DNA of 20,265 bases. It comes from a virus. How positions within the stretch are numbered: position 1 is the stretch's first letter; each line of letters begins with the position of its first letter. Position numbers and translations under genes: made by a program. The notes below the pieces were generated by a model that saw only the letters and a program-made list of their open reading frames with translations, searched no databases and was not told where the DNA came from. This document shows, piece by piece, positions 1 through 19,491 of the stretch. The stretch covers positions 1 through 20,265 of the IMG/VR virus record IMGVR_UViG_3300042691_001612; one strand, written 5' to 3'.

Positions 1-3000
1 CTCTAGCACGTATGGTTGACCCAATATCGTTTGCACCAGTACGTTACGCAGAAGCGATTGAAAAGTCGTTTAACCGCTTCTATGTACGCGGTACAATGCT
101 TAACCTAGGCGACACATCAGGTCTTGTTAATGGCGTTGAGGACTGGGTAAGTTCTGCAGCGTTTAAGACTGTACTTGGTAAAGAAGGTCAAGAAGCAGTT
201 ATTGCTACTATACAGCGTAACTTGTTTAAGGCTACCACTAACCAAGAGCGTGCTGTTGCAATTGAATCAGGTATCACTGAGATTACTGAGCAGATTGGTA
301 AGAAACTTAATTTAACTCCAGAAGAGATTGATATTCTTAAGCGTTCAACTAAGATTTCTGGTAGGGAAGAAGCAATTGAAAAGGCTTACAGCCTAGGCTC
401 AATCGCTGAAAACCGTGTAGCAAACATTGTTAATGCTGGCGGAGAAACAGTTCTACTGCCAGATGCAATCTTGGAACACCAGTTGCTCCGCGATATGATT
501 AATCTTCCTGATAGCAAAGCAGTCTTAAAGACTCTAACTAACTTCCAGGCTAATGCTGTCTATGGTCGCGTACGTCAGGGTAAGGTTCTTGCAGAAGAAT
601 TTGGCGATGTATGGCGTACAGCACAGTTGGTATTCCGATTCTCATACATCTTCCGTAACATTGCAGAAATGCAAATGCGTCAATTGTTCTCAGGTCACAA
701 TAACTTGATTTCAAGTCCGCTATCATTCCTATCAATGGTGATTGCAAACCCACAAGGCAATGAGTTCCAGAAGTTGGTATCTCGCTGGGGTAAGTATCAA
801 TATGATGCGACAGGTCAGATATTCAAGGAATCAGATGCAGAAGCAGAACTAACAGATGCAGTTCGTGCGTACCGTTCACAGATTAATCGCAAGCAGTCTG
901 TCTCTGATATGCGCTCTAGCCGTCACTCACAGGTATTTAAGTTCTACAAGGTAGTAGATTCTAACCACCCACAGTTTATGGAAGGCTTTGCCTATACCAT
1001 TAACAACTTCGTGGCTGATAAGTTCATCCCAGATGTAGTTAAATTAATGCAGAATGGTGACGAAGCAGCCAAGCGTGCCTATGTACAAAAACTCATTGAT
1101 GAGTATGATACTGCAGATAACATCCTTAAAGACTTCTCAACAGGTGTGTTCCAGAAGAATGATGGTATTCGTAACCTGTTCTTGAAGGACCCTAGTGCAG
1201 GATTTGGTAAAGATAACTTCAACGCAGATAATATCTTTATCTATCTCTTTGACGAAAAGCAGGTAGATACTGTTGCAGGTAACATCAAGGCACTTGCAGG
1301 TAGTGGTCCTAAGTCACACTTAGTACTAGAACTACTTCGCAATGGTGAGGTTGTTGTTGAAAAGGGTGGGAAACTAACCAAGATTCGTGCTCCTTATGCT
1401 CAGGGTATCAAAAATACCGCTGAAATGGAAGTTGCTGAGAAGCAATTCCTCAAAGCAATTCAGAGTAACTTTACAGCAGATGATGTAGCAGGTTCTAATG
1501 TGTTCGTAACTACAGAGCGTGCTATTGGTCAGGCTGGTCCTAAAGAAATTACATACGCAGTTGACAAGTTCTTTGAACTAGCAACCCGACTAGAGTCTAA
1601 GTATAACTTTGGTCCTGAGTATCAGATGTCTTATTGGGACTTCATTGGTGGTTATGCTCCAATGCTCAAGACAGATGACCTCAAGCGACTGCTTACAAGT
1701 GCAAACAACTCACTGGCTCCTGTAACTTTTATGGGTCGTCCAGTAGGTCGTAAGCATCCCACACTTCGTGTTATCTCTAAAGAACTTTCAAAGCGTGAGA
1801 AGAACATTGATTACGTACATCAAGGTGCTACTGAACTGCAGACTATCCATCAGATGGCTGCGCGTGAGGCTTCTAAGTATGTTAAAGATTTGTTCTATGA
1901 TGCTGCACGTCAGAATCAGTGGGCTAACGCATGGCGTCTAGCCTTCCCATTCGCACAGGCACACTACAACACACTTAATAAGTGGGGCGAATTGTTCTTG
2001 GCTAATCCTATACCTGCATACAAGTTTGGTAAGGCATACAACTCACTTAATCAAGAGGGTTCAAACACACTCTATGATATTAGTGGTATGACTTATGATG
2101 ACAACCAAGGTTTCTTCTATACTGAGCCAGGTTCTACTAATAAGCAGTTCAAGATTCCTCTAGTAGGTTCTGTCATGGGTGCTATGGCTGGTATGAACAT
2201 TGATACTCGTGAAGCACTGCAGATTACTGCACCAGTACAGTCACTTAACCTAGCATTTGGTCAGGTTAACCCAGGGTTGCCTGGTATTGGACCTGCACTA
2301 CAGGGATTGTACGCTGCTAGCGGTAAAACAACAGCATTTGGTCCAGTTAATGACATTTTACGCGACATTATTACACCGTTTGGTGCACCTAAATCTGCAG
2401 AAGATTTCGTGTTTCCAGCATGGTTACGCAAGACTATTGCATACCGTATGGGTGATGAGACAATGGTACAGCGTGGTGTTAAGGACTGGGCATCATACTT
2501 AGCATCTACTGGCAAGTATGGAACTAATCCATTAGCAAATGATGCAGAGCGTACACGACTATTCCAAGATGCTGAATCACTATCTCGTGAGGTTGGCTTC
2601 TTGAATGCACTGTTTCAGAGCATCTCACCTGCTACTCCATCTACAGAGGTTCTTGCAAAGATTAAGACTCCTGAGAACAAAGTACAATTCATGACATTAA
2701 CAATGCTTTACTCACACTGGGACGAGATTTCTCGTAAGAATCCAGGTGATTATGGCAAGTCTGTCTATCAGTTTGCTGAGGCATTTGGTGCTGAAAACTT
2801 GCTTATTGCACTAGGTGGTTCTACAGGTAACGTACGTGGTACTGATGATGCATGGACTTGGTTGAATAATAATCCAAGCGCTGCTGCTAAATATGCTCGT
2901 TCTCCTGGAGATGTAGTTCCTTATTTCTTCCCAGGTGGAGAGTATTCACTTAAGTACTACAACTGGCAAAAGACAACAGGTGCTCGCCGTAGCCTATCTG

Positions 3001-3455
3001 CTACAGAGTTATCTAATGAGGCTGAAAGCATGGTTTACTCAATGCTTAAGGACCAGATTGCAGAACAACAGATTGCTAATCGCTACCCAGACTTCTGGTA
3101 TAAAGAGCAGATTGACAAGTTAAACAAGCAATTTGGTGGCTCACGCCCACCTGATGCTGTCACAACTGGTACAGCGCAAGAGCGTATTGCTCGTATTGGT
3201 GAGGCACTACAAGACCCAGCATTTACTCAATCACCTGTATATAACCAGATATCTGAGTTCTATCCTAAGTATCAAGAGTTCCAAACTATACTTAACAAAG
3301 CAAAAGTATCCAACTATGCAGAACTTACTGCAAAGGGTGGATTAGCAACACTCATGCGTAATGAACTTGTTTCATTGGCTGAGCAATTAATGGTCGATAA
3401 TCCATCATTCTCTCGTATGTATTACGGAGTATTCGCAGGACAGTTGAAGGGCTAA
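1..3455 (+). CDS. Very large internal/head-associated virion protein, 5' end cut off
   Basis: The reading frame is open from base 3 and the first Met (base 12) has no ribosome-binding site in the 11 bases before it, so this is probably the C-terminal part of a longer protein; at least 1147 residues are present. No catalytic motif, signal peptide or clear transmembrane helix was recognised. Numbering from the Met at base 12, an aromatic and hydrophobic stretch lies near residues 203-245 (VFRFSYIFRNIAEMQMRQL). A second aromatic, helix-like region is near 612-678 (HQMAAREASKYVKDLFYDAA onward), and a Tyr/Trp-rich segment (FFPGGEYSLKYYNWQ) comes before the C-terminal helices. Size, position before scaffold and capsid genes, and lack of enzyme motifs suggest a structural protein carried in the head or ejected with the DNA. 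That role is inferred. The next gene begins one base after its stop. A MuF-type or portal fusion upstream cannot be excluded. Confidence 0.6.
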   Translation, partial: LARMVDPISFAPVRYAEAIEKSFNRFYVRGTMLNLGDTSGLVNGVEDWVSSAAFKTVLGKEGQEAVIATIQRNLFKATTNQERAVAIESGITEITEQIGKKLNLTPEEIDILKRSTKISGREEAIEKAYSLGSIAENRVANIVNAGGETVLLPDAILEHQLLRDMINLPDSKAVLKTLTNFQANAVYGRVRQGKVLAEEFGDVWRTAQLVFRFSYIFRNIAEMQMRQLFSGHNNLISSPLSFLSMVIANPQGNEFQKLVSRWGKYQYDATGQIFKESDAEAELTDAVRAYRSQINRKQSVSDMRSSRHSQVFKFYKVVDSNHPQFMEGFAYTINNFVADKFIPDVVKLMQNGDEAAKRAYVQKLIDEYDTADNILKDFSTGVFQKNDGIRNLFLKDPSAGFGKDNFNADNIFIYLFDEKQVDTVAGNIKALAGSGPKSHLVLELLRNGEVVVEKGGKLTKIRAPYAQGIKNTAEMEVAEKQFLKAIQSNFTADDVAGSNVFVTTERAIGQAGPKEITYAVDKFFELATRLESKYNFGPEYQMSYWDFIGGYAPMLKTDDLKRLLTSANNSLAPVTFMGRPVGRKHPTLRVISKELSKREKNIDYVHQGATELQTIHQMAAREASKYVKDLFYDAARQNQWANAWRLAFPFAQAHYNTLNKWGELFLANPIPAYKFGKAYNSLNQEGSNTLYDISGMTYDDNQGFFYTEPGSTNKQFKIPLVGSVMGAMAGMNIDTREALQITAPVQSLNLAFGQVNPGLPGIGPALQGLYAASGKTTAFGPVNDILRDIITPFGAPKSAEDFVFPAWLRKTIAYRMGDETMVQRGVKDWASYLASTGKYGTNPLANDAERTRLFQDAESLSREVGFLNALFQSISPATPSTEVLAKIKTPENKVQFMTLTMLYSHWDEISRKNPGDYGKSVYQFAEAFGAENLLIALGGSTGNVRGTDDAWTWLNNNPSAAAKYARSPGDVVPYFFPGGEYSLKYYNWQKTTGARRSLSATELSNEAESMVYSMLKDQIAEQQIANRYPDFWYKEQIDKLNKQFGGSRPPDAVTTGTAQERIARIGEALQDPAFTQSPVYNQISEFYPKYQEFQTILNKAKVSNYAELTAKGGLATLMRNELVSLAEQLMVDNPSFSRMYYGVFAGQLKG

Positions 3456-3456
3456 A

Positions 3457-4818
3457 ATGGCAGAACCGAGAGTACCTTATAACACAGGGTTTCAAACACC
3501 TACCGCCTTTTCATCAATGTCTAATGCAATCATTAGTGGTATGCCTGCTAATATGTATGGGGCTACTAATCCTTACTTGCCTTACTTAAACGCACCTGAT
3601 GCCACTGCAAAGGCTATTGAACTACAGAACTTAAAGCGTATGCTTAGTGCTCAAGCAGCACCTAGTGGTTCTAAAGCAACTAATATGTTTGACCACTGGC
3701 AGACACTTGCTCGTGCTACAGGTTTCTCAAAGGCTAAGACACCTATTGGTGTAATTGGGGCTGGAGATGACTCTGCAATGGCTACAATTATTGGTCTTGC
3801 TGCTGCTAACAATGCAGACCCTATCTCATACCTAGAGACTCTTAAGGCTTATGGTGTTGGTGCTAAGCCTGGTCCTAAGCAACCAGATACCACTACAAAG
3901 TACAATAAGCAGATATCTACTGCCTTGCAGTTGAAGGATGAAACAGAGGCTCGTCTTGAGTTTGGTAATGCTTATTACACAGCATTCGGTCAAGCACCTA
4001 GTGCAGACCTAGACAAGAAGTTTGTCAACCAGTGGAACTCCACAATTAAGGCACAGGCTGCTACTAGCACTACATCCACTGTGACATCTTATGCTCCTGT
4101 CTATGACAAGAAGAGCAAGCCAGTTATGGACCCTAAGACTAAGAAACAGAAGATTGATAAGTTTGGCAATCCTCAGTACTCAAAGCAGTTAAAGAACGCT
4201 GATGGAGTTCTCCAGTACCAAGCAATCAATAAGGTTTCTACAACAACGTCTGGTGAAGGATTTAACGCCGAAGAACAACAGCAGTTCCTTGCTGACTTCT
4301 TGGTTAAGAACTTTCCAAATGATAAGTTTGATGTTGAGAATCTAGGTGGTGCTGCTAAGGCTATCTATGATGACTTAGTAGGGACAAGTGTAAAAAACTA
4401 TGCTAAAGCACCAGACTTTGCAACGCTATCACCAGTTATCAAGGATATCCTTGGCACTGCTGACCAAAATGTAGCACAAGAAAAGATTAACAAATATAAG
4501 ACTGGTATCCGTAATCAAGTTGCTGCAAAGTATATGGGCATTGCTGATTATGTAAATGCAGGAGAAGACGCTGACAAGTATGTCAAGCCACTCATGCAGT
4601 CACTATCTAATGCTCTTGAAAGAGATGTTACTGAATCTGATGCATTACTTAAGCAAGCGCTTAATTTTAAGGGTGATGATGGCAAGTACCGCTTACCTAA
4701 CGATTGGGAAATGACTAAGTTAATCATGAGCGATGCAGGATATGGCAAGACCTCTACAGCCATTAACGAGGCTGTTAACTTAACCCAAGGTCTAAGAAGC
4801 AAGTTAGGACGTGGATAA
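3457..4818 (+). CDS. Virion-associated protein of unknown function (453 aa)
   Basis: I do not recognise a named family. The protein is soluble-looking, rich in Ala, Lys, Thr and Asn. The N-terminus is Pro/Asn/Tyr-rich (NMYGATNPYLPYLNAP near residues 32-47). Residues around 150-200 look helical (GNAYYTAFGQAPSADLDKKF). A Thr/Ser-rich linker with a charged loop (DKKSKPVMDPKTKKQKIDK) is mid-protein, and helices follow to the end. It starts one base after the stop of the giant protein and its own stop overlaps the next start (TAATG), so the three genes are probably co-translated. With the flanking genes it forms a three-gene block before the scaffold gene, where head or internal proteins are plausible. 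The function is inferred only from position. No cysteine-rich, enzymatic or membrane feature was seen. Confidence 0.65.
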   Translation: MAEPRVPYNTGFQTPTAFSSMSNAIISGMPANMYGATNPYLPYLNAPDATAKAIELQNLKRMLSAQAAPSGSKATNMFDHWQTLARATGFSKAKTPIGVIGAGDDSAMATIIGLAAANNADPISYLETLKAYGVGAKPGPKQPDTTTKYNKQISTALQLKDETEARLEFGNAYYTAFGQAPSADLDKKFVNQWNSTIKAQAATSTTSTVTSYAPVYDKKSKPVMDPKTKKQKIDKFGNPQYSKQLKNADGVLQYQAINKVSTTTSGEGFNAEEQQQFLADFLVKNFPNDKFDVENLGGAAKAIYDDLVGTSVKNYAKAPDFATLSPVIKDILGTADQNVAQEKINKYKTGIRNQVAAKYMGIADYVNAGEDADKYVKPLMQSLSNALERDVTESDALLKQALNFKGDDGKYRLPNDWEMTKLIMSDAGYGKTSTAINEAVNLTQGLRSKLGRG

Positions 4819-6293
4819 TGGCAGACACAACAAGTCTTGCTGGGATACTTGCTGCATCTAAAGCAGCACCAACAACAAAAAAACCATTAACTCAGGCAGA
4901 GATTGATGCTGCAACAGCAAAGCAAGTTGCTGCTGGTATTAAGAGCACATCTAAAGAAGCAAAGTTAGAAGGCGAAACTTATGCACAAGCAAATGCTCGC
5001 CTTACTGCTGGTTACAAAGCACAGGCTAAACCTGAACTAACAGTTGAAGGTAAAGCAGCAGGAGCAACAATTGAATTTGTTCGCACTGGTGCTGGTGGTG
5101 TTGGAACTTACAAGGAAGTATTCCCTATGGGGGCTGCTATTCCTGATAAACGCACAACCAACTATGGCAATGTTTATGATTCAAAGGGTAACCTTGTTTC
5201 AGGTACTGGTCTAAAAACTGGCACAGGTGGAAAGACAGTCCTGACCACTGTGGTAAACTCAGATGGTAGTACAACTGTTACTTATACAGATTTTACATCT
5301 ACTATTATTCCTAAAAAAGTTGTTGCTACAACCGACCCTGCAGTAGTTGTTACAGGCAATGGTCTTGTGACATCTACTACAGAAACTGGGCCCACTACCA
5401 ATGTTCAGGTGCTCAAGGCAGCACTTCGTAATCTTGGATTCTCCGCTGCAATTATTGATTCATCTACATCTTTTTTGACATCTCTTCTTAAAGAAGGTCT
5501 TGATTACGATAATGCTACAGAGGTATTCCTAAATAACAAGGAGTATACACTCAAGAGTGGCGCAAAGATTGAGTCACCTTTTTACACAGAGTATGGTTTC
5601 CTCAATGAGGGACTTGTAAAACCTAGGTCTGCTAATGAATTATTTAATGCAGTTGAGGGTTACAAAGAAGTAATAGACAAGTACAGCCTAAGCAAGAAAT
5701 ATCTTGACAAAGAATCTCTAAAACTATACACCAAGAATAATGTGTCTGTTGAGGATTTGGCTAGACGTGCAAACATTGCTACTCTCAAGTCAGTTAACCA
5801 AGACCCAGCCTATGTTGAGGCATTACAGAAACTTGGTTATATTGCAACTGCTGCTGACCTTAAGGATTTCTTCATGGACCCTAAGATTGGTCAAGAACAA
5901 CTAAACATTAATCGTACTACTGGAGCATTTGCAGCAGAGGCTATTCGCCGTGCTCAATCTGGTATCCAATTCAACAGTGAGCGTTTCAAAGCACTAGCGC
6001 AGACAATGGTTGAAAAGGGTGTTACCGAAGAAGGAGCAGCAACGCTTGCAGCGCAGGGCTTCGAGAACATTGCTGCTCAACTTGGTACTACGACCAAACT
6101 CTCTGGAATCTATGAGAACCAACGCGCAGCAACTATGGGCCAGGTTCAATCAGAACTTGAAAAAGAAGAGTTTAGTGGTCTTGAGTCTGAGCGTCGCAAG
6201 CGCTTGAAAGAACAAGAAATTAGAGCCTTCCAAGGTTCAGCAGGTACCACAGCAGGTTCCTTACGTCAAAGTAACGTACTAGGACTCCTATAA
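4818..6293 (+). CDS. Virion-associated protein with helical C-terminal half (491 aa)
   Basis: No named family is recognised. Residues 1-80 are Ala/Lys-rich and probably helical. Residues about 80-190 are Gly/Thr/Val-rich and probably beta or disordered. From about residue 195 the protein becomes helical, ending in a charged segment (ELEKEEFSGLESERRKRLKE) and a Ser/Gly/Thr-rich tail. A stretch near 395-440 (AQTMVEKGVTEEGAATLAAQ onward) resembles the helical repeats seen in internal proteins of other actinobacteriophages; that comparison is from memory. The start overlaps the preceding stop (TAATG), implying translational coupling. It is the last gene before a 117-base non-coding leader and the scaffold/capsid pair. 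A role as an internal or minor head protein is inferred. Confidence 0.62.
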   Translation: MADTTSLAGILAASKAAPTTKKPLTQAEIDAATAKQVAAGIKSTSKEAKLEGETYAQANARLTAGYKAQAKPELTVEGKAAGATIEFVRTGAGGVGTYKEVFPMGAAIPDKRTTNYGNVYDSKGNLVSGTGLKTGTGGKTVLTTVVNSDGSTTVTYTDFTSTIIPKKVVATTDPAVVVTGNGLVTSTTETGPTTNVQVLKAALRNLGFSAAIIDSSTSFLTSLLKEGLDYDNATEVFLNNKEYTLKSGAKIESPFYTEYGFLNEGLVKPRSANELFNAVEGYKEVIDKYSLSKKYLDKESLKLYTKNNVSVEDLARRANIATLKSVNQDPAYVEALQKLGYIATAADLKDFFMDPKIGQEQLNINRTTGAFAAEAIRRAQSGIQFNSERFKALAQTMVEKGVTEEGAATLAAQGFENIAAQLGTTTKLSGIYENQRAATMGQVQSELEKEEFSGLESERRKRLKEQEIRAFQGSAGTTAGSLRQSNVLGLL

Positions 6294-6300
6294 AAGAATC

Positions 6301-6328
6301 CCCACCTGGACCCATCGGCCCCAGGGGG
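6301..6328 (+). promoter_or_regulatory. GC-rich hairpin in the leader before the scaffold gene
   Basis: Bases 6305-6309 (CCTGG) pair with 6321-6325 (CCAGG). With one bulged A at 6304 the stem extends by three C-G pairs (6301-6303 with 6326-6328), leaving an 11-base loop. This is the most GC-rich patch between genes in the window. It lies 8 bases after the stop of the 491-aa gene and is followed by TATAAG, not by a run of T, so it is not a standard intrinsic terminator. It may be an mRNA processing or stability element, or part of a promoter region for the capsid transcript. The 117-base gap holding it (6294-6410) contains no other convincing signal. Confidence 0.4.
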
Positions 6329-6396
6329 CGTATAAGACCGAAAGTACAAGCCAATGCAGATACCCCATCTGAATTGAGGTGTGCGACAACTACTAA

Positions 6397-6403
6397 AAGG
6401 GAG
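6397..6403 (+). promoter_or_regulatory. Ribosome-binding site that fixes the scaffold start
   Basis: AAGGGAG is centred about 10 bases before ATG 6411, leaving a 7-base spacer. The frame is open further upstream with a possible GTG at 6381, but that codon lacks a comparable purine-rich site, so ATG 6411 is preferred. Confidence 0.6.
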
Positions 6404-6410
6404 ACTCGCT

Positions 6411-6890
6411 ATGAGCGAAAACCGCGACAACTACTGGGCAGATGACGAAGACGATGAAGAAACAAGCACACCTGTGTTTGAATCAGATTCGGACCTTGTT
6501 AAGCGACTACGTAAGCAACTAAAGGCTGAGCAGCGCAAAAACAAAGAACTTGAGACATCATATGGTGAACTCACCAAGGCCCAAAAAGAGCGGATTCTAA
6601 AGGATGTACTTACATCCAAGGGTGTCAATCAAAAGATTGCACAGTTTATTCCATCCGATATTGAGGCATCTGAAGATGCTATTAGTAACTGGCTAGATGC
6701 CAATGGTGAAATCTTCGGATACACACCAGCACCTAAGCCAGCAGTAAACGAAAATGATATCGCTGCAATGCAGAAAATGGATTCTGTGCTAACTAATGCT
6801 GAGACACCTGCTTCTTCTAACGATTTACAAAATCGTCTTGCTAACGCAACAACGGAAGAAGAGATTCTATCCATTCTCAGCGGTCAGTAA
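6411..6890 (+). CDS. Capsid scaffolding protein
   Basis: A 159-residue, strongly acidic, highly charged protein directly before the major capsid gene, the usual position and size for a phage scaffold. Residues 10-30 are an Asp/Glu-rich disordered head (DDEDDEE). Residues about 27-66 form a charged heptad-like helix (LVKRLRKQLKAEQRKNKELE) expected to be a coiled coil. Residues 66-82 (VLTSKGVNQKIAQFIPSD) match a segment I associate with actinobacteriophage scaffolds, and the C-terminus is another helix (TTEEEILSILSGQ). Scaffolds of this kind guide assembly of the HK97-fold shell and leave before or during DNA packaging. No protease motif was seen, so a fused maturation protease is unlikely. Confidence 0.75.
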   Translation: MSENRDNYWADDEDDEETSTPVFESDSDLVKRLRKQLKAEQRKNKELETSYGELTKAQKERILKDVLTSKGVNQKIAQFIPSDIEASEDAISNWLDANGEIFGYTPAPKPAVNENDIAAMQKMDSVLTNAETPASSNDLQNRLANATTEEEILSILSGQ

Positions 6891-6926
6891 AAAACCGCAC
6901 ACTAACCAGAAAGGGGATATCGGCAG

Positions 6927-7898
6927 ATGCCTGATGTCTTTTCAACCACAACCTCGGGGTTAGGTTCCAATCTTGTAACTATGGCGTACGACAAGTTGAT
7001 TGAAATCAACTTGCGTTCAACACCACAGTTCCGCGCAATTGCGGACAAGAAAATTGGAAACCCAACTCACGACGGTTCTTCAATTCGTTTCCAGTTCCAC
7101 AACGATATTTCTGACACCTCAATCGCAGGTGCCACACTCGCTGAAACTGTAGACCCAGATGCAGTAGCATTGCCAGCAACAACAACCCTAGATGTCGTAC
7201 AGACAGAACTAGGTCGCGTTGTACTTCCAACACGCAAGTTGTCACTAATGTCACTTGCAGACGTAGACCCATGGATTGCTAACGCAGTTGCATTCAACAT
7301 GGCAATGACACTAGACAATGGTGTTGCTGCTGTTCTTGATGCAGGTACAAACGTCATCCGTGAGGCTGGCTCAGCACTATCAACAACTGCTGCAAAGACA
7401 GCAATCACAGCAACAGACACATTCAAGGGTCGCGACGTACGTTACGCAGTAACAAAGTTGCGCGCAGAGAATGTTCTAACACGCGGCGGAATGTATGTTT
7501 CATACATCCACCCAGAAGTTTCACACGACCTACGCACAGAGACAGGTAACAACATCTGGCGTACACCACATGAGTACCAAGGTGTTGGTTCACTCTATGC
7601 TGGTGAACTAGGCGCATGGGAAGGTGTTCGTTTCATCGAGACACCACGCATGACAAACACACAGTCAGGCTCAGGAACAGGCGCAACTCAGACTCGCGTC
7701 TACAACACCTACGTACTAGGACAGCAAGCACTTGCTGAGGCAGTATGGAAGGAACCAGGCATTGAGTTTGGTAACGTTGTTGACAAGTTGAACCGTTTCC
7801 GTCCAGTCGGCTGGCATGGAATCATCAACTGGTCTGTCTTCCGTCAGGCTGCGTTGTACCGCATTGAGACTGCTTCAACAGTACGTCCAAACGCGTAA
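6927..7898 (+). CDS. Major capsid protein, N4-gp56-like (HK97 fold)
   Basis: A 323-residue protein right after the scaffold gene, of the right length for an HK97-fold shell protein without a long processed arm. The layout fits the N4-gp56 major capsid family: an N-terminal helical arm (residues 15-45), then beta-rich E-loop-like sequence (50-105). A helical spine follows around 110-140 and 168-182, then the YIHPEVSHDLR segment (193-203), and the GELGAWEGVRFIET strand (226-239). A C-terminal segment is typical of shell subunits (LGQQALAEAVWKEPGIEFG). The family name is from memory; the capsid role is well supported by context. The start has AAGGGGAT 9 bases upstream. The gene uses C-ending codons (AAC, TAC, CGC) more than its neighbours, as expected for the most abundant virion protein. 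Confidence 0.8.
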   Translation: MPDVFSTTTSGLGSNLVTMAYDKLIEINLRSTPQFRAIADKKIGNPTHDGSSIRFQFHNDISDTSIAGATLAETVDPDAVALPATTTLDVVQTELGRVVLPTRKLSLMSLADVDPWIANAVAFNMAMTLDNGVAAVLDAGTNVIREAGSALSTTAAKTAITATDTFKGRDVRYAVTKLRAENVLTRGGMYVSYIHPEVSHDLRTETGNNIWRTPHEYQGVGSLYAGELGAWEGVRFIETPRMTNTQSGSGTGATQTRVYNTYVLGQQALAEAVWKEPGIEFGNVVDKLNRFRPVGWHGIINWSVFRQAALYRIETASTVRPNA

Positions 7899-7913
7899 TC
7901 TAAGTATTTAGAT
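7898..7913 (+). repeat. Perfect 6-bp inverted repeat at the capsid stop codon
   Basis: ATCTAA at 7898-7903 and TTAGAT at 7908-7913 flank GTAT. The first base is the last base of the capsid stop codon. It could be a small hairpin or an operator-like site. It shares two bases with the larger hairpin downstream, so the two RNA structures would compete at that edge. Confidence 0.4.
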
Positions 7914-7947
7914 GGGTGGGGCAGGGGGTAACTCCTGCTCTATCCAT
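7912..7947 (+). terminator. 16-bp hairpin with GUAA tetraloop after the capsid gene
   Basis: Bases 7912-7927 pair without a break to 7932-7947: 16 pairs, of which four are G-U as RNA, closed by the tetraloop GUAA (7928-7931), a GNRA loop. Only 14 bases separate it from the capsid stop. The sequence after the stem is AAAACGG, with no T-run, so intrinsic termination should be weak. A partial terminator, or a 3' stabiliser or processing site that raises capsid mRNA over downstream genes, fits better. The G-U pairs mean the structure is stable on the + strand RNA only, which supports an RNA role. Confidence 0.65.
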
Positions 7948-7967
7948 AAAACGGCTTAGGAGGCTAT

Positions 7968-8219
7968 ATGGCATACAGATTCACAACACCTACAGTGAGC
8001 GAAGGCCCTGCAGGTGAAGGCCGTCTATTTGGCCGTTACAGGCTTACTAGAGGCATTACAGTTCTTAAGATAGATGGCGAATACTACGAAACTCGCTATC
8101 CATCCTCAGAAGAGGTAGATGCCGCTGACGAGGCATACTTGGGAGGATACTCCTATGAAGTTAGTCCAGGAGAAAAAGCCAGTCTTGAGGCTGCAGGTTA
8201 TACAGTGGAGACGGTATGA
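7968..8219 (+). CDS. Small virion-region protein (83 aa), unknown function
   Basis: A well-formed gene with TAGGAGG a few bases before the start. The N-terminal half is probably beta-rich with aromatic residues (RLFGRYRLTRGITVLKIDGE), followed by an acidic middle (EEVDAADEAYLGG) and a short C-terminal stretch reading SYEVSPGEKASLEAAGY. I recognise no named family. It is the first gene after the post-capsid hairpin. Its stop overlaps the start of the next gene as ATGA, so the two are probably translated together. A capsid accessory role is possible from position alone. Confidence 0.6.
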   Translation: MAYRFTTPTVSEGPAGEGRLFGRYRLTRGITVLKIDGEYYETRYPSSEEVDAADEAYLGGYSYEVSPGEKASLEAAGYTVETV

Positions 8220-9379: not shown

Positions 9380-9615
9380 TGGCTTTGGCTAAGTCTCAGC
9401 AGTCACTCAAGAAGTGGACTGCACAGAAGTGGAAGACATCAGATGGTAAGCCCTCTAAGGGCAAGAAAAGATATCTACCGTCTGCTGCTTGGGAAGCATT
9501 AACTCCAGGCGAAAAGGCTGCCACTAATCGAGCCAAGGCCAAAGGTAATGCAAAGGGTAAGCAGTTCGTAAAGCAACCTAAATCAGTAGCAAAGAAAACA
9601 AAAGGTTACAGATGA
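9379..9615 (+). CDS. DUF5872-like basic protein, C-terminal-type half (78 aa)
   Basis: A 78-residue basic protein with the chain SLKKWTAQKWKTSDGKPSKG (9-28), KKRYLPSAAWEALTPGEKAA (29-48), TNRAKAKG (49-56) and GKQFVKQPKSVAKKTKGYR (60-78). The WTxQKWxTxxGKPS, RYLP and GKQFVxQPKxxAKKTxxYR signatures are ones I recall from phage and giant-virus proteins of the DUF5872 type, where they may follow the WSARKAQ module in one chain. It starts at the overlapping TAATG of the 63-aa gene and its own stop overlaps the next start as ATGA. Role unknown; the aromatic/basic pattern would suit a nucleic-acid or capsid contact, which is inference. Confidence 0.68.
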   Translation: MALAKSQQSLKKWTAQKWKTSDGKPSKGKKRYLPSAAWEALTPGEKAATNRAKAKGNAKGKQFVKQPKSVAKKTKGYR

Positions 9616-9890
9616 AAGACTCACGACTAACACGGGCTGGAGTAGCAGGCTTTAATAAGCCTAAGCGTACTCCAAGCCACCCTACTAAGTCACACGTAGT
9701 TGTGGCTAAGGTAGGTAGCCAGGTTAAGACCATACGTTTTGGACAACAAGGCGTTTCTGGCTCACCTAAAAAAGCAGGAGAATCTGCTGCCAATGCAGCA
9801 CGACGTAAGTCTTTCAAAGCAAGACATGCAAGCAATATATCCAAAGGAAAAATGAGTGCCGCATATTGGGCAGACAAGGTGAAATGGTAA
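9612..9890 (+). CDS. Conserved-looking basic phage protein (92 aa)
   Basis: Coupled to the previous gene by ATGA and to the next by TAATG. The sequence is ordered and distinctive: KDSRLTRAGVAGFNKPKRTP (2-21), SHPTKSHVVVAKVG (22-35), VKTIRFGQQGVSGSPKK (38-54), ARRKSFKARHASNISKGKMS (63-82), AAYWADKVKW (83-92). The segments TPSHPTKSHVVVAK, IRFGQQG and ARRKSFKARH-SAAYWADKVKW look like a family I remember from marine and freshwater phages, annotated only as a domain of unknown function. Beta strands in the first half and a basic helix in the second suggest a folded protein that can bind DNA or RNA. No enzymatic residues stand out. Confidence 0.66.
   Translation: MKDSRLTRAGVAGFNKPKRTPSHPTKSHVVVAKVGSQVKTIRFGQQGVSGSPKKAGESAANAARRKSFKARHASNISKGKMSAAYWADKVKW
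9876..9882 (+). promoter_or_regulatory. Ribosome-binding site that fixes the start at 9890
   Basis: AAGGTGA lies 7 bases before ATG 9890, which also overlaps the previous stop as TAATG. The upstream in-frame ATG at 9866 lies inside the previous gene with no such site, so the 191-residue form is preferred over the 199-residue one. Confidence 0.55.
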
Positions 9891-10465: not shown

Positions 10466-10484
10466 TTCAAACTAAAGGAATCCA

Positions 10485-11390
10485 ATGACAACGACCTATG
10501 CCAATTTGGTAGATGAGATTACTCTCAATCTGTCAGGCTATACATTAAGGCAAGACCGTACTACTCATTTGACTGCTGACGTGACCTCTTCTGGTCTATC
10601 ACTAAGTCTGGGCAGTGTGACCAATATTGGTAAAGGTGTTGTGGAAATTGATGACGAGTTAATATGGCTAGATACATATGACCGTATCTCATCAGTTGGT
10701 AACATTGCTCCTTATGGTCGTGGCTACCACGGTACAACGGCTGCAGCACACACAACAAATACCAAGGTAACAATTGCTCCAACTTTCCCACGAGCAACTA
10801 TTAAGAAGGCTATCAATGATACAATTGATGCAGTATTTCCTAACCTATTTGCTGTCGGAGTTCACACCTTCACATATAACACAGTTAAGACAACATACTC
10901 ACTTCCTGCCGAAGTGCAAACAATTCTGTATGTCTCATACAAGCCAACAGGACCAACAGAAGAATGGCTACCTGTAAGAAACTACCGCGCAGACGTATTT
11001 GCTAATACAACAGCATTTGCAACAGCACAGAGTATTTCAATCTATGACCGCATTGAGTCAGGTCGTACAGTTCAAGTTTATTATTCAAAGAAGCCATCTA
11101 CACTAACAGCGTCTGCATCTAGTGCAGTATTTGAGACTGTTACAGGATTACCTTCATCTTGCAAGGATGTCATTGTTTACGGCGCAGCATATCGCTTAGC
11201 ATCCTTCGTTGACCCAGGTCGACTTAACTACTCATCTGCAGAAGCAGACAATGCAGACACCAAGATTCAATATGGCTCTGGTGCATCTACTGCCCGATTC
11301 CTTCTTGCTCTCTATCAGCAACGCCTAAACGAAGAGACTAAGAAACTACGCGATGTTTACCCAACCCGAATCCACTACACGAGGTACTAA
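10485..11390 (+). CDS. Probable head-tail adaptor/connector protein (301 aa)
   Basis: Starts at an ATG with AAAGGA a few bases upstream. Residues about 35-105 form a beta-rich insert (GKGVVEIDDELIWLDTYDRI, then YGRGYHGTTAAAHTTNTKV). Helices follow (RATIKKAINDTIDAVFPNLF), then a beta region (TYSLPAEVQTILYVSYKP), and a C-terminal helix-turn-helix (VIVYGAAYRLASF, then RFLLALYQQRLNEETKKLRD). A helical core with a beta insert and a long C-terminal helix is the layout of podovirus gp11-type adaptors. The match is by architecture and by position after the capsid and accessory genes, not by a known signature. It could equally be a tail-completion protein. The YGRGxxGTTAAAH segment is echoed in the next gene. 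Confidence 0.55.
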   Translation: MTTTYANLVDEITLNLSGYTLRQDRTTHLTADVTSSGLSLSLGSVTNIGKGVVEIDDELIWLDTYDRISSVGNIAPYGRGYHGTTAAAHTTNTKVTIAPTFPRATIKKAINDTIDAVFPNLFAVGVHTFTYNTVKTTYSLPAEVQTILYVSYKPTGPTEEWLPVRNYRADVFANTTAFATAQSISIYDRIESGRTVQVYYSKKPSTLTASASSAVFETVTGLPSSCKDVIVYGAAYRLASFVDPGRLNYSSAEADNADTKIQYGSGASTARFLLALYQQRLNEETKKLRDVYPTRIHYTRY

Positions 11391-11393
11391 AAT

Positions 11394-13796
11394 ATGACAG
11401 TCCGCAGATATTCCTCCACTTCTCAGGAAACTAACCTTGCCTCAGCGCTGAACTCTAGCGCAACTACTATGGTGGTCAACTCCGCATCAGCGCTTCTTTC
11501 TAGTATCACGCCTGGTGCTGGTGAAACATTTACTGTTGTTATTGACCCAGATACAGCCCTTGAAGAAATTGTAGATGTAATAAGTCCTAGTGCTCCAGGC
11601 AGCAATACACTAACAATTACTCGTGGTACTGGTGTAGATGGCACTACTGCTATTTCTCACTCTGCTGGTGCAAAGGTACGTCACATGGCTATTGGCCGTG
11701 ACTTCCGTGAGGCTAACAACCACATTAAGAACGAGACAACTGCTCACGGACTGACTATTGCTAACGTCCTAGAGACAACCGACACAAACATGATTACCAC
11801 AGCAATGTTGCAGTCATCTTCTGTAACTACCGCAAAAATTGCTGATGCTAACGTCACAACTGCAAAGTTGGCTGATGGCTCAGTAACTTCTGCAAAGATT
11901 GCAGACCTAAGTATTGCTACAGGTGATATTGCAGACTTTGCTATTACAAGCGGTAAGATTGCAACAGGTGCTGTAGGCACAGCAAAGATTGATGACCTGT
12001 CAGTAACAGAGGCAAAGATTGCCCCTACTGCAGTAACTACTGGCAAGATTGCAGATTCAGCAATTACCAGTGCAAAGATTGCAGACGGAACAATTGTTGC
12101 TGGCGACATTGCAGATGGAGCCATTACCTCAGCAAAGATTCTTGATGGAACTATTGCTACTGGAGACATTGCTGACAGTGCTATTACTTCGGCTAAGATT
12201 GCCGATGGCACTATTGTGGCTGGTGACCTAGCAGACGGAGCAGTTACATCTGCCAAGATTCTAGATGGCACAATTGTTAACGCTGACGTATCAGCAACTG
12301 CTGCTATTGCTAAGACTAAGTTAGACCTTGGCGGAACTATTACCTCTGCCGACTTGGTTGATGGAACTATCGTTAACGCAGATATTAACGCTGCTGCTGG
12401 TATTGCACTTAGCAAGTTAGCGGTAGACCCACTGGCTCGTGGTAATCACACTGGTACTCAAGCAGCATCTACTATTTCAGACTTTGATACACAGGTTCGC
12501 ACATCTCGCTTAGACCAGATGGCAGCACCTACTGCAGCCGTTTCTTTTAATAGCCAAAAGATTACAAATTTAGCAAACCCTGTAGATAACGGAGACGCTG
12601 TAAGTCTTGGATATTTTGCAAGCCAAAAGGGTGCCAACAATGGTATTGCTTCCCTTGATAGCACTGGAAAAATTCCAACTTCTGAACTTCCCGCAATTGC
12701 TGTTGCCACTGTATATGTAGTTGCATCGCAAGCAGCAATGCTTGCACTGCCATCTGATATCGGAGAAATTGCTATTCGTACAGATGTCAGCAAATCTTTT
12801 ATTCTTTCAGCAGCACCTGCTAGCACTCTGGCAAACTGGAAAGAACTTCTTACTCCACCTGATGCAGTTCTTTCTGTAGACTCACAGACTGGTAACGTAA
12901 CATTATCTAATACATACATTAATAGAACTACTGGTCAGTTGCTTGGCAACTTAGATGCAAATACTCACAAGGTAACTAACTTAGGCGCTCCAACATCTAA
13001 CAATGATGCTGCTACTAAGGTCTATGTAGATACAGTTGCTGGTTCTGCTAGTGCTGCTGCTGCTTCTGCAGCCGCTGCTGCAACAACATACGATAACTTT
13101 GATGACCGCTACTTAGGCGCTAAGTCAACTGCACCTACACTAGATAATGATGGCAACTCAATTATTGAAGGTGCTATTTACTGGAACTCAGTAACCAATG
13201 CAATGTATGCGTGGACTGGCACAGAGTGGGGTTCAATCTCATCTACTGCTGACATCTATCGCTTCCGCTTTACGGCATCAGGTGGAGAGACATCAGAGTC
13301 AGGTCTAGATGATAACGGATTAACACTTGCCTACATCCCAGGTAAGGAGCAGGTATACCTTAATGGTGTACTACTTGCTCGTACCTCTGATTATAACGCT
13401 ACAAATGGCTCAAGTATTACAGGACTAGCAGCATTGACTGCTGGAGATATCCTAGAAGTAATTACATTCACAGCCTTTGAACTAGCAGACTCAATTGCTC
13501 GTTCACTCTTTGACGCAAAGGGCGACATCTTAGTTGCTACTAGCGCAGATACACCAGGTAAGTTACCAGTTGGTACAAATGGTTACTTCCTCAAGGCTGA
13601 TTCATCTACAGCAACAGGCTTAGCCTGGGGCGCGGTAGTAACTAATCCTCTGACTGGAACTGGTGGAGACCTTGGTGACACTATCTTTACGGGTTCAACA
13701 ACTCCTTCATCTCCTACAACTGGAGATATTTGGATTGACACAACAGTTGACACGACACCTGATTTAACACTAATGACAATTATGGGAGCGTACTAA
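11394..13796 (+). CDS. Long tail fibre with decapeptide repeats (800 aa)
   Basis: An N-terminal anchor domain (about 1-110) contains EEIVDVI and a TITRGTGVDGTTAISHSAGA segment similar to one in the adaptor. Residues 145-294 are 15 exact ten-residue repeats of the type TSAKIADGTI/VAGDIADGAI, typical of long fibrous shafts. Then follow common fibre motifs: NHTGTQAASTISDFD, QKITNLANPVDNGDAVS, and KVTNLGAPTSNNDAATKVYV, an Ala/Ser coiled stretch, and DDRYLGAKSTAPTLDNDGN leading into a YWNS..YAWTGTEW module. A beta domain follows (IPGKEQVYLNGVLLARTSDY), and the end has a KGDILVATSADTPGKLPVG module. The protein is expected to be a trimeric fibre joining the tail to receptor-binding tips. Six further candidate fibre or accessory genes follow. 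Confidence 0.8.
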   Translation: MTVRRYSSTSQETNLASALNSSATTMVVNSASALLSSITPGAGETFTVVIDPDTALEEIVDVISPSAPGSNTLTITRGTGVDGTTAISHSAGAKVRHMAIGRDFREANNHIKNETTAHGLTIANVLETTDTNMITTAMLQSSSVTTAKIADANVTTAKLADGSVTSAKIADLSIATGDIADFAITSGKIATGAVGTAKIDDLSVTEAKIAPTAVTTGKIADSAITSAKIADGTIVAGDIADGAITSAKILDGTIATGDIADSAITSAKIADGTIVAGDLADGAVTSAKILDGTIVNADVSATAAIAKTKLDLGGTITSADLVDGTIVNADINAAAGIALSKLAVDPLARGNHTGTQAASTISDFDTQVRTSRLDQMAAPTAAVSFNSQKITNLANPVDNGDAVSLGYFASQKGANNGIASLDSTGKIPTSELPAIAVATVYVVASQAAMLALPSDIGEIAIRTDVSKSFILSAAPASTLANWKELLTPPDAVLSVDSQTGNVTLSNTYINRTTGQLLGNLDANTHKVTNLGAPTSNNDAATKVYVDTVAGSASAAAASAAAAATTYDNFDDRYLGAKSTAPTLDNDGNSIIEGAIYWNSVTNAMYAWTGTEWGSISSTADIYRFRFTASGGETSESGLDDNGLTLAYIPGKEQVYLNGVLLARTSDYNATNGSSITGLAALTAGDILEVITFTAFELADSIARSLFDAKGDILVATSADTPGKLPVGTNGYFLKADSSTATGLAWGAVVTNPLTGTGGDLGDTIFTGSTTPSSPTTGDIWIDTTVDTTPDLTLMTIMGAY
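11826..12275 (+). repeat. Fifteen 30-bp (10-residue) repeats in the fibre shaft
   Basis: Fifteen in-frame, gapless units, from TTAKIADANV to TSAKILDGTI, encode residues 145-294. The consensus is roughly (T/V)(S/T/A)(A/G)(K/D)I(A/L)D(G/S)(T/A)(I/V). Conserved Ile/Val at positions 5 and 10 suggests a stacked beta or triple-helix shaft. After base 12275 the period breaks into imperfect related sequence up to about 12425. Codons vary between units. Confidence 0.85.
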
Positions 13797-17505: not shown

Positions 17506-19491
17506 ATGGCAACGCCAGATATTACGGAAAATATCCCGTTAAACGTTGGTAACCCTGGAACCTCTGGTTTCTGGTCTAACAATGCTGAGGATTATGATGT
17601 TGCTGTCGGTGGCTTGCCATTCTTCTTAGCACCTACTGACCAACAGCCTTACCAGCGTGAGACTGCTCCATACCGCAAAGACCAGTTCGACAATGGTACT
17701 GAGCCAGGAGAACAGTCACTAACTGGTTGGTGGATTCGTTCACAGTCATCTTTCCATGTTGGCAACGGTATTAAGTTCTATGACCCATCAGCAGGTGAGA
17801 CAACTAAGTATCGCTTTGCCGACTCACAAGGTGTAGATGTATGGACTAAAGGCGAAGTTAAACTCCTCAAAGATGTAGTAGAAACACACGTTACTACTGG
17901 TCCAGTAGTAGGCACAGACCATCAACACCGAAATCAAAATATACATTCTATTCAATGGAGTGGGAATAACGGTGTGTTACTTCACGATGAATTTGACGTA
18001 GACAAGATTGCTGCTGACGGAACAGTTACTCATTATATTGATTATGTTCCTGGAACAACAGAAAAAGTATATGCAATATGCAACGATGGAGTCAATGCCT
18101 ATTGGGTAACTAATCAAGTTCATGGTGGTGCCAATAAACTTCATATGTACAAAAAACCATTAACTGGTTCTTCTGCAAGTACTGCAGATGAAACTCTTAT
18201 GTTTCGTGGTGATTCAATTGTTATCACCTATGCTGCTATGGATTTTATTAAAGACCGTATTATCCTATGCGTAAATAACAGAGTTTATGAATTAGCAACA
18301 AATTCTACTTCTTTGCCTTCTCCAGTTTATACAAATCCTAACACCAACTACCACTACACATCTGTGGCTGCATCTGGTCCTGCTATCTACACAGCGGGTC
18401 ACTCAGGTATTTACTCTACTATCCAGAAGTACACACTAACTACTGCTGGTGCTATGCCTACCCTCACACAGGCTGTAGTGGCAGCAGAATTTCCTACTGG
18501 TGAAATAGTAGAAAAGTTATATTACTATCTAGGTTACATGATGATTGGTACATCTAAGGGTGTACGTGCTTCTATTGTTAGCCCTGATGATGGCTCTTTA
18601 TCTTACGGTCCACTTATCGTTGAGACATCTCAACCAGTCTATGACTTTGCTGCACGTGACCGTTTTGTATGGTGCACATCAGGTATTGGTGCTTTAGATG
18701 CTGGACTTATCCGTATTGATTTAGGTCAGAGCATTGAGGGTGAACCATTACGTTTTGCCTATGCAAATGACTTACAAGTAACCCAATCTGCAGAACACTA
18801 TACAACAGGTGTTGCATTCATTGGCACTACTAATCGTCTTGCTTTTTGCACAGCACATAATACTACTGATGGTGCAATCTACATGGAGTCAGCAACAGTG
18901 CTACGTCCAACAGGATACGTGACCACTGGCGCTATCCGCTATGGAACACTTGAGCCAAAGAACTTTAAGTTAATCCGTGCCCGTGGTGACTTTACCCATG
19001 GCGCTATGGACATCTTTGCTATTGACCCTAGTGAAAACATATACACAATTATTACTTACAATGCTGCTGTTGGAACCCCAGAGGCTGCTACAACCAACCC
19101 AGAGGGCCCACAAGAGTATCTGTCATACAAATTTACGCTCTCACGCAGCGCAACCACGACTAGCCAAGGCCCTGTGTTTAAGGGTTATCAAGCCAAGGCT
19201 CTACCTGCTACAGCACGTCAACGGGTGATTCAGTTCCCTGTATGGTGTTTTGACGTAGAGACCGACAGATATAACGTAAAGACTGGATACGAAGGACGTG
19301 CGTGGGAGCGTATTCAACTACTTGAAGACATAGAGAAACTAGGAGATATCGTGAACGTGCAAGACTTTACTACTGGTGAGCGTGTGCAGGCTTTAATCGA
19401 AAAGGTTAACTTCTCACGCAAGACTCCACCATCAGGTCAGTTTGACGGCTTCGGCGGTCTTCTCCTCATCACAGTCAGGACTGTTTTATAA
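17506..19491 (+). CDS. Large tail protein, beta-propeller-like (661 aa)
   Basis: AAGGAG lies 5 bases before the start. The middle has repeated strand-turn segments with small residues and aromatics (NNGVLLHDEF, DGVNAYWVTNQV, DRIILCVNNRVYELATN, GPAIYTAGHSGIYSTIQK, GYMMIGTSKGVRASI, DRFVWCTSGIGALDAGLIRI, TNRLAFCTAHN), at roughly 45-60 residue spacing, which suggests a beta-propeller. The C-terminal part (GYEGRAWERIQLLEDIEKLG, then VQDFTTGERVQALIEKVNFS, then GFGGLLLITVRTVL) resembles the ends of large minor tail proteins in actinobacteriophages. A tail nozzle or hub is likely; podovirus nozzles also contain propellers. A minor tail protein of a long-tailed phage is the alternative. It precedes the lysis genes and overlaps the next start (TAATG). 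Confidence 0.65.
   Translation: MATPDITENIPLNVGNPGTSGFWSNNAEDYDVAVGGLPFFLAPTDQQPYQRETAPYRKDQFDNGTEPGEQSLTGWWIRSQSSFHVGNGIKFYDPSAGETTKYRFADSQGVDVWTKGEVKLLKDVVETHVTTGPVVGTDHQHRNQNIHSIQWSGNNGVLLHDEFDVDKIAADGTVTHYIDYVPGTTEKVYAICNDGVNAYWVTNQVHGGANKLHMYKKPLTGSSASTADETLMFRGDSIVITYAAMDFIKDRIILCVNNRVYELATNSTSLPSPVYTNPNTNYHYTSVAASGPAIYTAGHSGIYSTIQKYTLTTAGAMPTLTQAVVAAEFPTGEIVEKLYYYLGYMMIGTSKGVRASIVSPDDGSLSYGPLIVETSQPVYDFAARDRFVWCTSGIGALDAGLIRIDLGQSIEGEPLRFAYANDLQVTQSAEHYTTGVAFIGTTNRLAFCTAHNTTDGAIYMESATVLRPTGYVTTGAIRYGTLEPKNFKLIRARGDFTHGAMDIFAIDPSENIYTIITYNAAVGTPEAATTNPEGPQEYLSYKFTLSRSATTTSQGPVFKGYQAKALPATARQRVIQFPVWCFDVETDRYNVKTGYEGRAWERIQLLEDIEKLGDIVNVQDFTTGERVQALIEKVNFSRKTPPSGQFDGFGGLLLITVRTVL

What the first reader, a model, noticed from the sequence alone, without database searches (positions are those of the whole stretch)
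1..6293. Giant and two large unassigned proteins before the scaffold, with no tape measure after the capsid
More than 2000 residues of unassigned, apparently structural protein precede the head genes, while the capsid-to-fibre interval lacks tail-tube, chaperone and tape-measure genes. This implies a short-tailed phage whose internal/ejection proteins are encoded before the capsid gene, unlike the T7 order, where they follow the tail-tube genes.
Basis: partly seen in the sequence, partly recalled or inferred. Interest (0 to 1): 0.5.

Follow-up and report, generated by a model that had tools for sequence, protein, structure and literature searches.

The report
Swappable ejection cassette of freshwater podophages
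Three large genes before the capsid gene of a freshwater phage most likely make the protein machine that is shot into the cell ahead of the DNA, and related phages exchange these genes as one block.

Summary
Partly confirmed. The window is a phage fragment whose giant gene is cut at its left end. Two contigs 99.9% identical to it give the whole protein (1938 aa); one also shows portal and the end of terminase upstream. Order: terminase, portal, two small genes, giant, 453 aa, 491 aa, scaffold, capsid, adaptor, fibres, putative nozzle.

Streptomyces podophages (Beephvirinae; 16 nm tail in one by published TEM) have the same layout, and their matching genes include NlpC/P60 and SLT cell-wall hydrolases.

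Best reading: the block encodes an ejection apparatus, placed before the capsid gene rather than after the tail genes as in T7, P22 and SU10. All 43 distinct giants examined (82,202 residues) lack cysteine; the main ejection proteins of T7, P22, N4 and SU10 nearly do (1 in 10,820 residues).

New here: the block is exchanged as a unit. Of 80 contig pairs with portal and capsid core at least 88% identical, 43 have giants at most 65% identical, against 0 of 80 for the scaffold. Two isolated Planktophila phages, 96-98% identical on both sides, share nothing alignable in it.

Virion location is not shown, no hydrolase was recognised in the window's block, and its modelled parts match no solved structure.

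The parts
3..3455 (+). Giant protein, C-terminal 1150 residues (5' end of the gene lies outside; whole protein 1938 aa); inferred ejection protein
   Evidence: full frame in L010 and L022; phrog_10618 E 4e-8; weak profile link to FlowerPower gp9, better link to E7-type giants; no cysteine
3457..4818 (+). 453-aa protein; C-terminal half related to the shared C-terminal part of FlowerPower gp11 (NlpC/P60) and gp12 (SLT), a stretch of the N-terminal half perhaps to gp10; inferred ejection protein
   Evidence: hhalign; Foldseek in viral models; Pfam none
4818..6293 (+). 491-aa protein, C-terminal part related to FlowerPower gp13; inferred ejection protein
   Evidence: phrog_8424 E 1e-22; hhalign E 2e-17, 2e-14 against Streptomyces sequences alone
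6226..6293 (+). Right edge of the exchanged block in the window's own lineage: high DNA identity to G014 and G031 resumes at about 6281 and 6226
   Evidence: L010/G006 positions 11669 and 11614 minus the offset 5388
6381..6890 (+). Scaffold (inferred), conserved right flank of the block
   Evidence: phrog_7813 E 1e-36 (no function given), phrog_648 head scaffolding E 1e-4; Dennebes gene 36 at this place annotated scaffolding protein
6927..7898 (+). Major capsid protein
   Evidence: phrog_1357 E 9e-61; Pfam Phage_capsid_3
10485..11390 (+). Head-tail adaptor of the SU10 type
   Evidence: Pfam PF24175 E 9e-11, above cut-off
11394..13796 (+). Tail fibre protein
   Evidence: phrog_38058 E 2e-81 tail fiber
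17506..19491 (+). Putative nozzle (inferred from place only)
   Evidence: phrog_11667 E 2e-147, function unknown; no PDB match

Best explanation
The giant (1938 aa), 453-aa and 491-aa proteins are the ejection apparatus of a short-tailed actinobacterial phage. They are packed in the head, leave it through portal, adaptor and nozzle ahead of the DNA, and extend the conduit across cell wall and membrane. The three genes, with the later part of the small gene before them, form a cassette that relatives exchange as one unit between conserved portal and scaffold genes. Shown: layout, homology of the 453- and 491-aa proteins to Beephvirinae gp11/gp12 and gp13, hydrolase domains there, absence of cysteine, exchange with sharp DNA junctions. 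Inferred: virion location, ejection, channel formation, and the selective reason (escape from entry blocks such as superinfection exclusion, or matching of a host envelope component).
For: Three large co-exchanged genes in late-gene position between portal and scaffold in the relatives examined. Homologues gp11 and gp12 carry NlpC/P60 (E 2e-29) and SLT (E 4e-5) domains at the N-terminus and share their C-terminal part with the 453-aa protein. Cysteine: 0 in 82,202 residues of 43 distinct giants, 0 in 19,588 (491-aa family), 3 in 17,504 (453-aa family, all within the first 9 residues of the frames as called); in four Streptomyces relatives the five block proteins have one cysteine per phage, at position 33 of gp11. 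Ejection sets of T7, P22, N4, SU10: 1 in 10,820. Coherence: identity ranks giant/453 0.96, giant/491 0.90. P22 precedent: gp16 and gp20 of Sf6 function in P22 only together (section read). Podovirus TEM of relatives.
Against: No virion proteomics. No hydrolase recognised in the block of the window's group: Pfam on the window's three proteins, on those of G001 and E7, and on 29 members of the 491-aa family; NlpC/P60 occurs in 5 of 11 relatives but elsewhere in the genome. No predicted transmembrane stretch by hydropathy. No fold match in PDB, though half of the giant's modelled part is of low confidence and its N-terminal 791 residues were not modelled. The giant's link to gp9 is weak with Streptomyces sequences alone (probability 24). 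Capsid and scaffold proteins are almost as poor in cysteine (4 in 13,702 and 4 in 5,843), so that sign does not single out ejection; T7 gp6.7, annotated as injected, has one in 88. A review assigns ejection proteins to phages of Gram-negative hosts in the main (passage).
Confidence: 0.72

Rival explanations
1. They are outer tail proteins (tail-tip wall hydrolases and a giant spike or fibre), as the annotation minor tail protein of some Streptomyces relatives suggests.
For: gp11 and gp12 are annotated minor tail protein in Kumquat and Dennebes; wall hydrolases also occur at tail tips (recalled).
Against: Fibres and putative nozzle are encoded elsewhere; outer tail proteins of the same group are not free of cysteine (putative nozzle 54 in 6,979 residues, adaptor 18 in 5,736); in the pairs E7/F5 and G017/G029 the block changes while the adaptor stays 98-99% identical.
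Confidence: 0.13
2. The giant is a virion-carried enzyme or polyvalent injected effector, like the N4 virion RNA polymerase, rather than a conduit part.
For: Size; absence of cysteine shared with N4 vRNAP; long stretches without known fold.
Against: No polymerase or other enzyme family in Pfam or PHROGs for the window, G001, FlowerPower or E7 giants; no fold match.
Confidence: 0.1
3. The giant is a tape measure of a long-tailed phage.
For: Length, mostly helical model.
Against: SU10-type adaptor; TEM of relatives with the same layout shows podoviruses; no long-tail tube or chaperone family over cut-off in the window.
Confidence: 0.02
4. On the exchange claim: the cassette merely evolves fast in place and is not exchanged.
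For: Cassette genes are more divergent throughout (mean identity 42, 35 and 39% against 74% for the portal); AU tests reject even the sister cassette trees; strong rank reversals are a minority (180 of 11,023 ordered triples).
Against: The window's lineage (G006) has portal 97.4 but giant 49.1 with G014, and portal 89.2 but giant 87.4 with G005; DNA junctions are abrupt; 12 of 19 strong giant splits contradict strong portal splits, against 1 of 14 portal splits contradicted by the scaffold; on giant data the portal tree costs 8180 log units, the 453-aa tree 343.
Confidence: 0.05

Closest known systems
Beephvirinae (Streptomyces phages FlowerPower, Kumquat, Abafar, Dennebes) gp9-gp13 or their equivalents
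   Same: Place between portal and scaffold, giant first, related 453-aa C-terminal part and 491-aa protein, near absence of cysteine, podovirus relatives
   Different: Five proteins instead of three, two with wall hydrolases, a tRNA array between block and scaffold; the giants are only weakly alike
Planktophila phages LanE43AprE7 and F5 (OX376640, OX376641)
   Same: Same layout, portal 54% and giant C-terminal part detectably related; their 8 kbp island is this block
   Different: Shorter giants (1764 and 1711 aa) without direct BLAST match to the window's
Ejection proteins of P22 (gp7, gp20, gp16)
   Same: Highly variable, mosaic, must match one another (sections read); no cysteine
   Different: Encoded after the tail genes; no sequence relation found; Gram-negative host
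T7 gp14-gp16 and SU10 gp20-gp24
   Same: Several large internal proteins, almost no cysteine; SU10 shares the adaptor family
   Different: Encoded after the tail genes
N4 virion RNA polymerase gp50
   Same: Giant ejected virion protein without cysteine
   Different: Has a polymerase; in transcription order it follows the capsid gene; no polymerase recognised here

Membership tests
Podovirus ejection (internal virion) proteins | Present inside the virion and lost on DNA release | not testable with these tools
   No proteomics or cryo-EM at hand
Podovirus ejection (internal virion) proteins | Phage has a short tail | tested here: inconclusive
   SU10-type adaptor; TEM only for Streptomyces relatives
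Podovirus ejection (internal virion) proteins | Sequence or fold relation to a known ejection protein | tested here: not met
   No match to T7, P22, N4 or SU10 ejection families in PHROGs or Pfam; none by profile or fold in PDB. The known sets are themselves mostly unrelated to one another (recalled; partly)
Podovirus ejection (internal virion) proteins | Peptidoglycan hydrolase in the set (common, not universal) | tested here: inconclusive
   Met in the Streptomyces relatives, not found in the window's group
Podovirus ejection (internal virion) proteins | Almost no cysteine (my own working sign, not an established definition) | tested here: met
Tape measure protein | Long tail with tube and chaperone genes beside it | tested here: not met
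   None over cut-off in the window; podovirus relatives
Beephvirinae-type pre-capsid block | Giant and following proteins between portal and scaffold, with homologues of gp11/gp12 C-terminal part and gp13 | tested here: met
N4-type virion RNA polymerase | RNA polymerase domain | tested here: not met
   No such family in Pfam or PHROGs for the window or G001 giant; the N-terminal part was scanned by sequence only

The most novel reading that the evidence does not exclude
Podophages of actinobacterial (single-membrane) hosts carry a complete ejection machine as a self-contained cassette that is exchanged whole between otherwise nearly identical phages, because superinfection exclusion or host entry factors select for new types; and strict exclusion of cysteine marks proteins that must be threaded through the virion channel, whatever their family.
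Probability: 0.4. Interest if true: 0.78.

Novelty: new variant of a known kind. Interest (0 to 1): 0.6.

Why it matters
DNA entry by short-tailed phages is known mainly from Gram-negative hosts. This gives a natural series, from the wider group that includes the first isolated 'Ca. Nanopelagicales' phages, in which one module of about 8 kb changes while its neighbours do not. E7 and F5 grow on the same host strain, so what the cassette decides (entry factor, exclusion, host range) becomes directly testable. The absence of cysteine, if general, is a simple sequence sign for finding ejected proteins that family searches miss.

Tried and rejected
Tape measure or long-tail reading: rejected on the adaptor family and on TEM of relatives. 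Fold comparison of the giant's C-terminal 1147 residues (mean pLDDT 62.8) and of the 453-aa protein (79.0) against PDB: no match with E <= 0.001, best 0.42 and 0.24. Repeated weak TolC rows (TM about 0.09) were judged meaningless. Profiles of giant, 453-aa, 491-aa, adaptor and putative nozzle against PDB sequences: nothing below E 0.1. tblastn of the window's part of the giant in annotated phages: no match at E <= 0.1. Papers: Nanopelagicales with phage and ejection gave none; some searches listed 8 of 639, 8 of 105 and 10 of 39 papers, and no listed title or abstract start speaks of cysteine in ejection proteins; the word is absent from the main text of PMC12633501, PMC10925440, PMC8954989 and PMC8402733. 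Most subscription papers are not held, and I recall, without a source here, that the missing cysteine of N4 vRNAP has been remarked on. VIA-align, NCBIfam and PADLOC were not used.

For the 491-aa protein it holds (E 2e-14). The gp12 comparison also includes the E7 protein; the gp11 one does not. That phrog_10618 is the gp9 family is inferred from its length (1722).

Limits of counts: contigs were chosen by similarity to the window's giant or capsid (best 80 of 241), so exchange frequency is no population estimate. Some contigs are near-duplicates (G014/G033, G016/G032, G036/G037). Tree tests used 29 of 46 contigs; E7, F5, G019 and G044-G046 (giants not reliably alignable) and contigs with partial portal or without scaffold or a cassette gene were left out. 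Capsid identity uses the first 250 residues only. Of G001's 54 called frames, 20 were scanned for families. In the cysteine comparison only listed genes of each phage were counted; N4 gp51 and gp52 were taken as ejection proteins from recall; T7 gp6.7 and gp7.3 (1 in 88, 0 in 99) are outside the 10,820.
Full report
What the window is. It is a 20,265-base virus record with no further sequence of its own. Its capsid protein is 44-47% identical to that of 29 Streptomyces phage records (those opened belong to Beephvirinae) and of Planktophila phages E7 and F5. WhiB, in the control genomes found only in Corynebacterium, was found in 10 of 11 larger relatives, so an actinobacterial host is likely. 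Since E7 and F5 were isolated on 'Ca. Planktophila' (PMC10202952, first of two parts of the text read, and passages), it may infect freshwater Nanopelagicales; this is inference.

Extending the contig. L010 (17,911 bases) and L022 (18,261 bases) overlap the window with 5 mismatches in 12,523 and 11 in 15,645 bases and carry the giant as one 1938-aa frame. L010 also carries the portal and the end of the terminase gene. In the 42-kb relative G001 the order is terminase (623 aa), portal (585), 81 aa, 142 aa, giant (1930), 462, 547, scaffold (170), capsid (324), then adaptor, fibres and putative nozzle; terminase and portal are confirmed by family.

The tail. No tape measure, chaperone or long-tail tube family passes its cut-off in the window; one weak match to a tail tube initiator (15.6 bits, cut-off 27) was seen for 9612-9887. 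The gene at 10485 is an SU10-type adaptor. In SU10 the order is portal, scaffold, capsid, adaptor, long fibres, short fibres, nozzle, needle, then ejection proteins gp20-24 (passages; record). The window's group shares the first part of this plan but has its large unassigned proteins between portal and scaffold. Two relatives with this layout are podoviruses by TEM: Abafar, tail 16 +/- 2 nm (PMC11536984, passages), and FlowerPower (PMC9753666, passages).

What the three proteins are. In FlowerPower the block is gp9 (1635 aa), gp10, gp11 with NlpC/P60, gp12 with SLT, and gp13. Profile comparison links the window's 491-aa protein to gp13 (E 2e-17; 2e-14 without the E7 sequence) and the C-terminal half of the 453-aa protein to gp11 and gp12 (E 2e-10 and 3e-10). 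A short stretch of its N-terminal half resembles gp10 (E 2e-4, probability 49). Foldseek on the 453-aa model in viral models finds a 430-aa FlowerPower protein (E 4e-6, by length gp12) and a 271-aa protein of phage Manuel (E 3e-4, by length the gp10 equivalent). The giant matches phrog_10618 (E 4e-8) and shares about 350 C-terminal residues with the giants of E7, F5, G019 and G044-G046 (E 4e-7, probability 93). Its link to gp9 in the same region is weak: probability 83 with E7 included, 24 with the four Streptomyces sequences alone.

Cysteine. All 43 distinct giants of the 46 contigs, 82,202 residues, have none. The 491-aa family has 0 in 19,588 and the small gene before the giant 0 in 4,869. 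The 453-aa family has 3 in 17,504, each within the first 9 residues of the frame as called, perhaps before the true start. Portal has 94 in 22,190, terminase 104 in 14,789 and putative nozzle 54 in 6,979. Ejection sets of other phages behave alike: T7 gp14-16 1 in 2261, P22 0 in 1309, N4 0 in 4294, SU10 0 in 2956; the other listed proteins of these phages run at 0.6-1.2%. In FlowerPower, Kumquat, Abafar and Dennebes the five block proteins hold one cysteine per phage, residue 33 of gp11, the NlpC/P60 nucleophile by recall. Against: scaffolds and several capsid proteins are also nearly free of cysteine, and T7 gp6.7, annotated as injected, has one in 88. So the sign supports but does not prove ejection. 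A plausible reason, inferred, is that ejected proteins must unfold, pass a narrow channel and refold outside the cytoplasm.

Exchange as a unit. E7 and F5 are 96.4% identical over 5.5 kb up to about 90 bases inside the gene before the giant, and 97.7% identical from the last 10 bases of the third cassette gene onward. Between these points nothing aligns (8549 against 8267 bases); the other gaps over 300 bases are at most 545 bases long. This is the 8 kbp island that their paper reports as hypothetical proteins without homologues in the other phage. Among 46 contigs, 561 of 1035 pairs had portal and capsid measured. In 80 both were at least 88% identical; of these, giants were at most 65% identical in 43, the 453-aa protein in 60, the 491-aa protein in 68, the scaffold in none. 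G017 and G029 have portal 95.7, scaffold 97.8, capsid 98.0, adaptor 97.7, but giant 35.2, 453-aa 21.8 and 491-aa 43.9. The window's own lineage (G006) against G014 has 97.4, 93.1, 91.2 and 88.7 against 49.1, 46.7 and 44.3; against G005 it has portal 89.2 but giant 87.4.

Junctions and trees. In the six exchanged pairs examined the left junction lies about 90-200 bases inside the small gene before the giant. In 33 pairs its first 45 residues stay 75-89% identical while later parts fall to 21-65%. The right junction lies from the last bases of the 491-aa gene to about 1 kb inside it; the pair G006/G005, with alike cassettes, shows no left junction. On 29 contigs portal and scaffold trees share 14 of 26 splits, giant and 453-aa trees 18, giant and 491-aa trees 14, giant and portal trees 8; 12 of 19 strong giant splits contradict a strong portal split, 4 a strong 453-aa split, 5 a strong 491-aa split. 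On giant data the portal tree is 8180 log units worse than the giant tree, the 453-aa tree 343, the 491-aa tree 2504; the AU test rejects every tree but each gene's own, portal and scaffold included. So the cassette is coherent but not perfectly so. Identity ranks: giant with 453-aa 0.96, giant with 491-aa 0.90, portal with scaffold 0.92, giant with portal 0.76. Strong rank reversals are a minority: 180 of 11,023 ordered triples. One portal cluster of 13 contigs (92% linkage) holds five cassette types. The adaptor changes independently too: at most 65% identical in 7 of 15 such pairs.

How it may work. P22 offers the experimental precedent: its ejection proteins gp16 and gp20 are among the most variable parts of the virion gene cluster, those of Sf6 work in P22 only together, and mutations in them overcome the exclusion protein SieA (PMC10883804, two sections and passages read). 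A cassette that must match internally but is interchangeable as a whole would produce what is seen here. The junction inside the small upstream gene suggests, as inference, that this protein links a conserved partner (portal or scaffold) by its N-terminal part to the changing giant by the rest.

Verdict. The ejection reading is likely but unproven. Whole-cassette exchange is well supported by sequence; within the searches made I saw no description of it as an ejection module in these phages.

Noticed in passing
6927-7898; relatives such as L048, L050, L066: Many relatives' capsid genes are about 72 codons longer than the window's (395 against 323 aa), with the extra part after residue about 250; the core stays about 90% identical.
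   Followed up: no
10485-13796: The adaptor also changes abruptly between contigs with alike portal and capsid (at most 65% identical in 7 of 15 pairs): a second exchanged region independent of the cassette.
   Followed up: partly
11394-13796, roughly residues 130-340: The fibre protein holds a run of short repeats of the type ..TTAKIADG.. / ..ITSAKIADG.. (seen in the translation).
   Followed up: no
L002:15986-18057: In Streptomyces relatives a tRNA array sits exactly between the pre-capsid block and the scaffold, the right border of the cassette.
   Followed up: no
G001 (L115) 1852-4421, minus strand: An amidoligase-like gene next to a class II glutamine amidotransferase-like gene, conserved in several relatives.
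   Followed up: no
16920-17444: Sub-cut-off Pfam match to the Lcl C-terminal domain (E 5e-7, 30.4 bits, cut-off 34.9) in the fibre region.
   Followed up: no
9814-10491 (-) and 9866-10465 (+): Two long frames on opposite strands overlap almost fully; which one is a gene was not settled.
   Followed up: no
G012 (L120) 3365-8012: One relative has extra large frames (956, 183 and 348 aa) between the small genes after the capsid gene and the adaptor.
   Followed up: no
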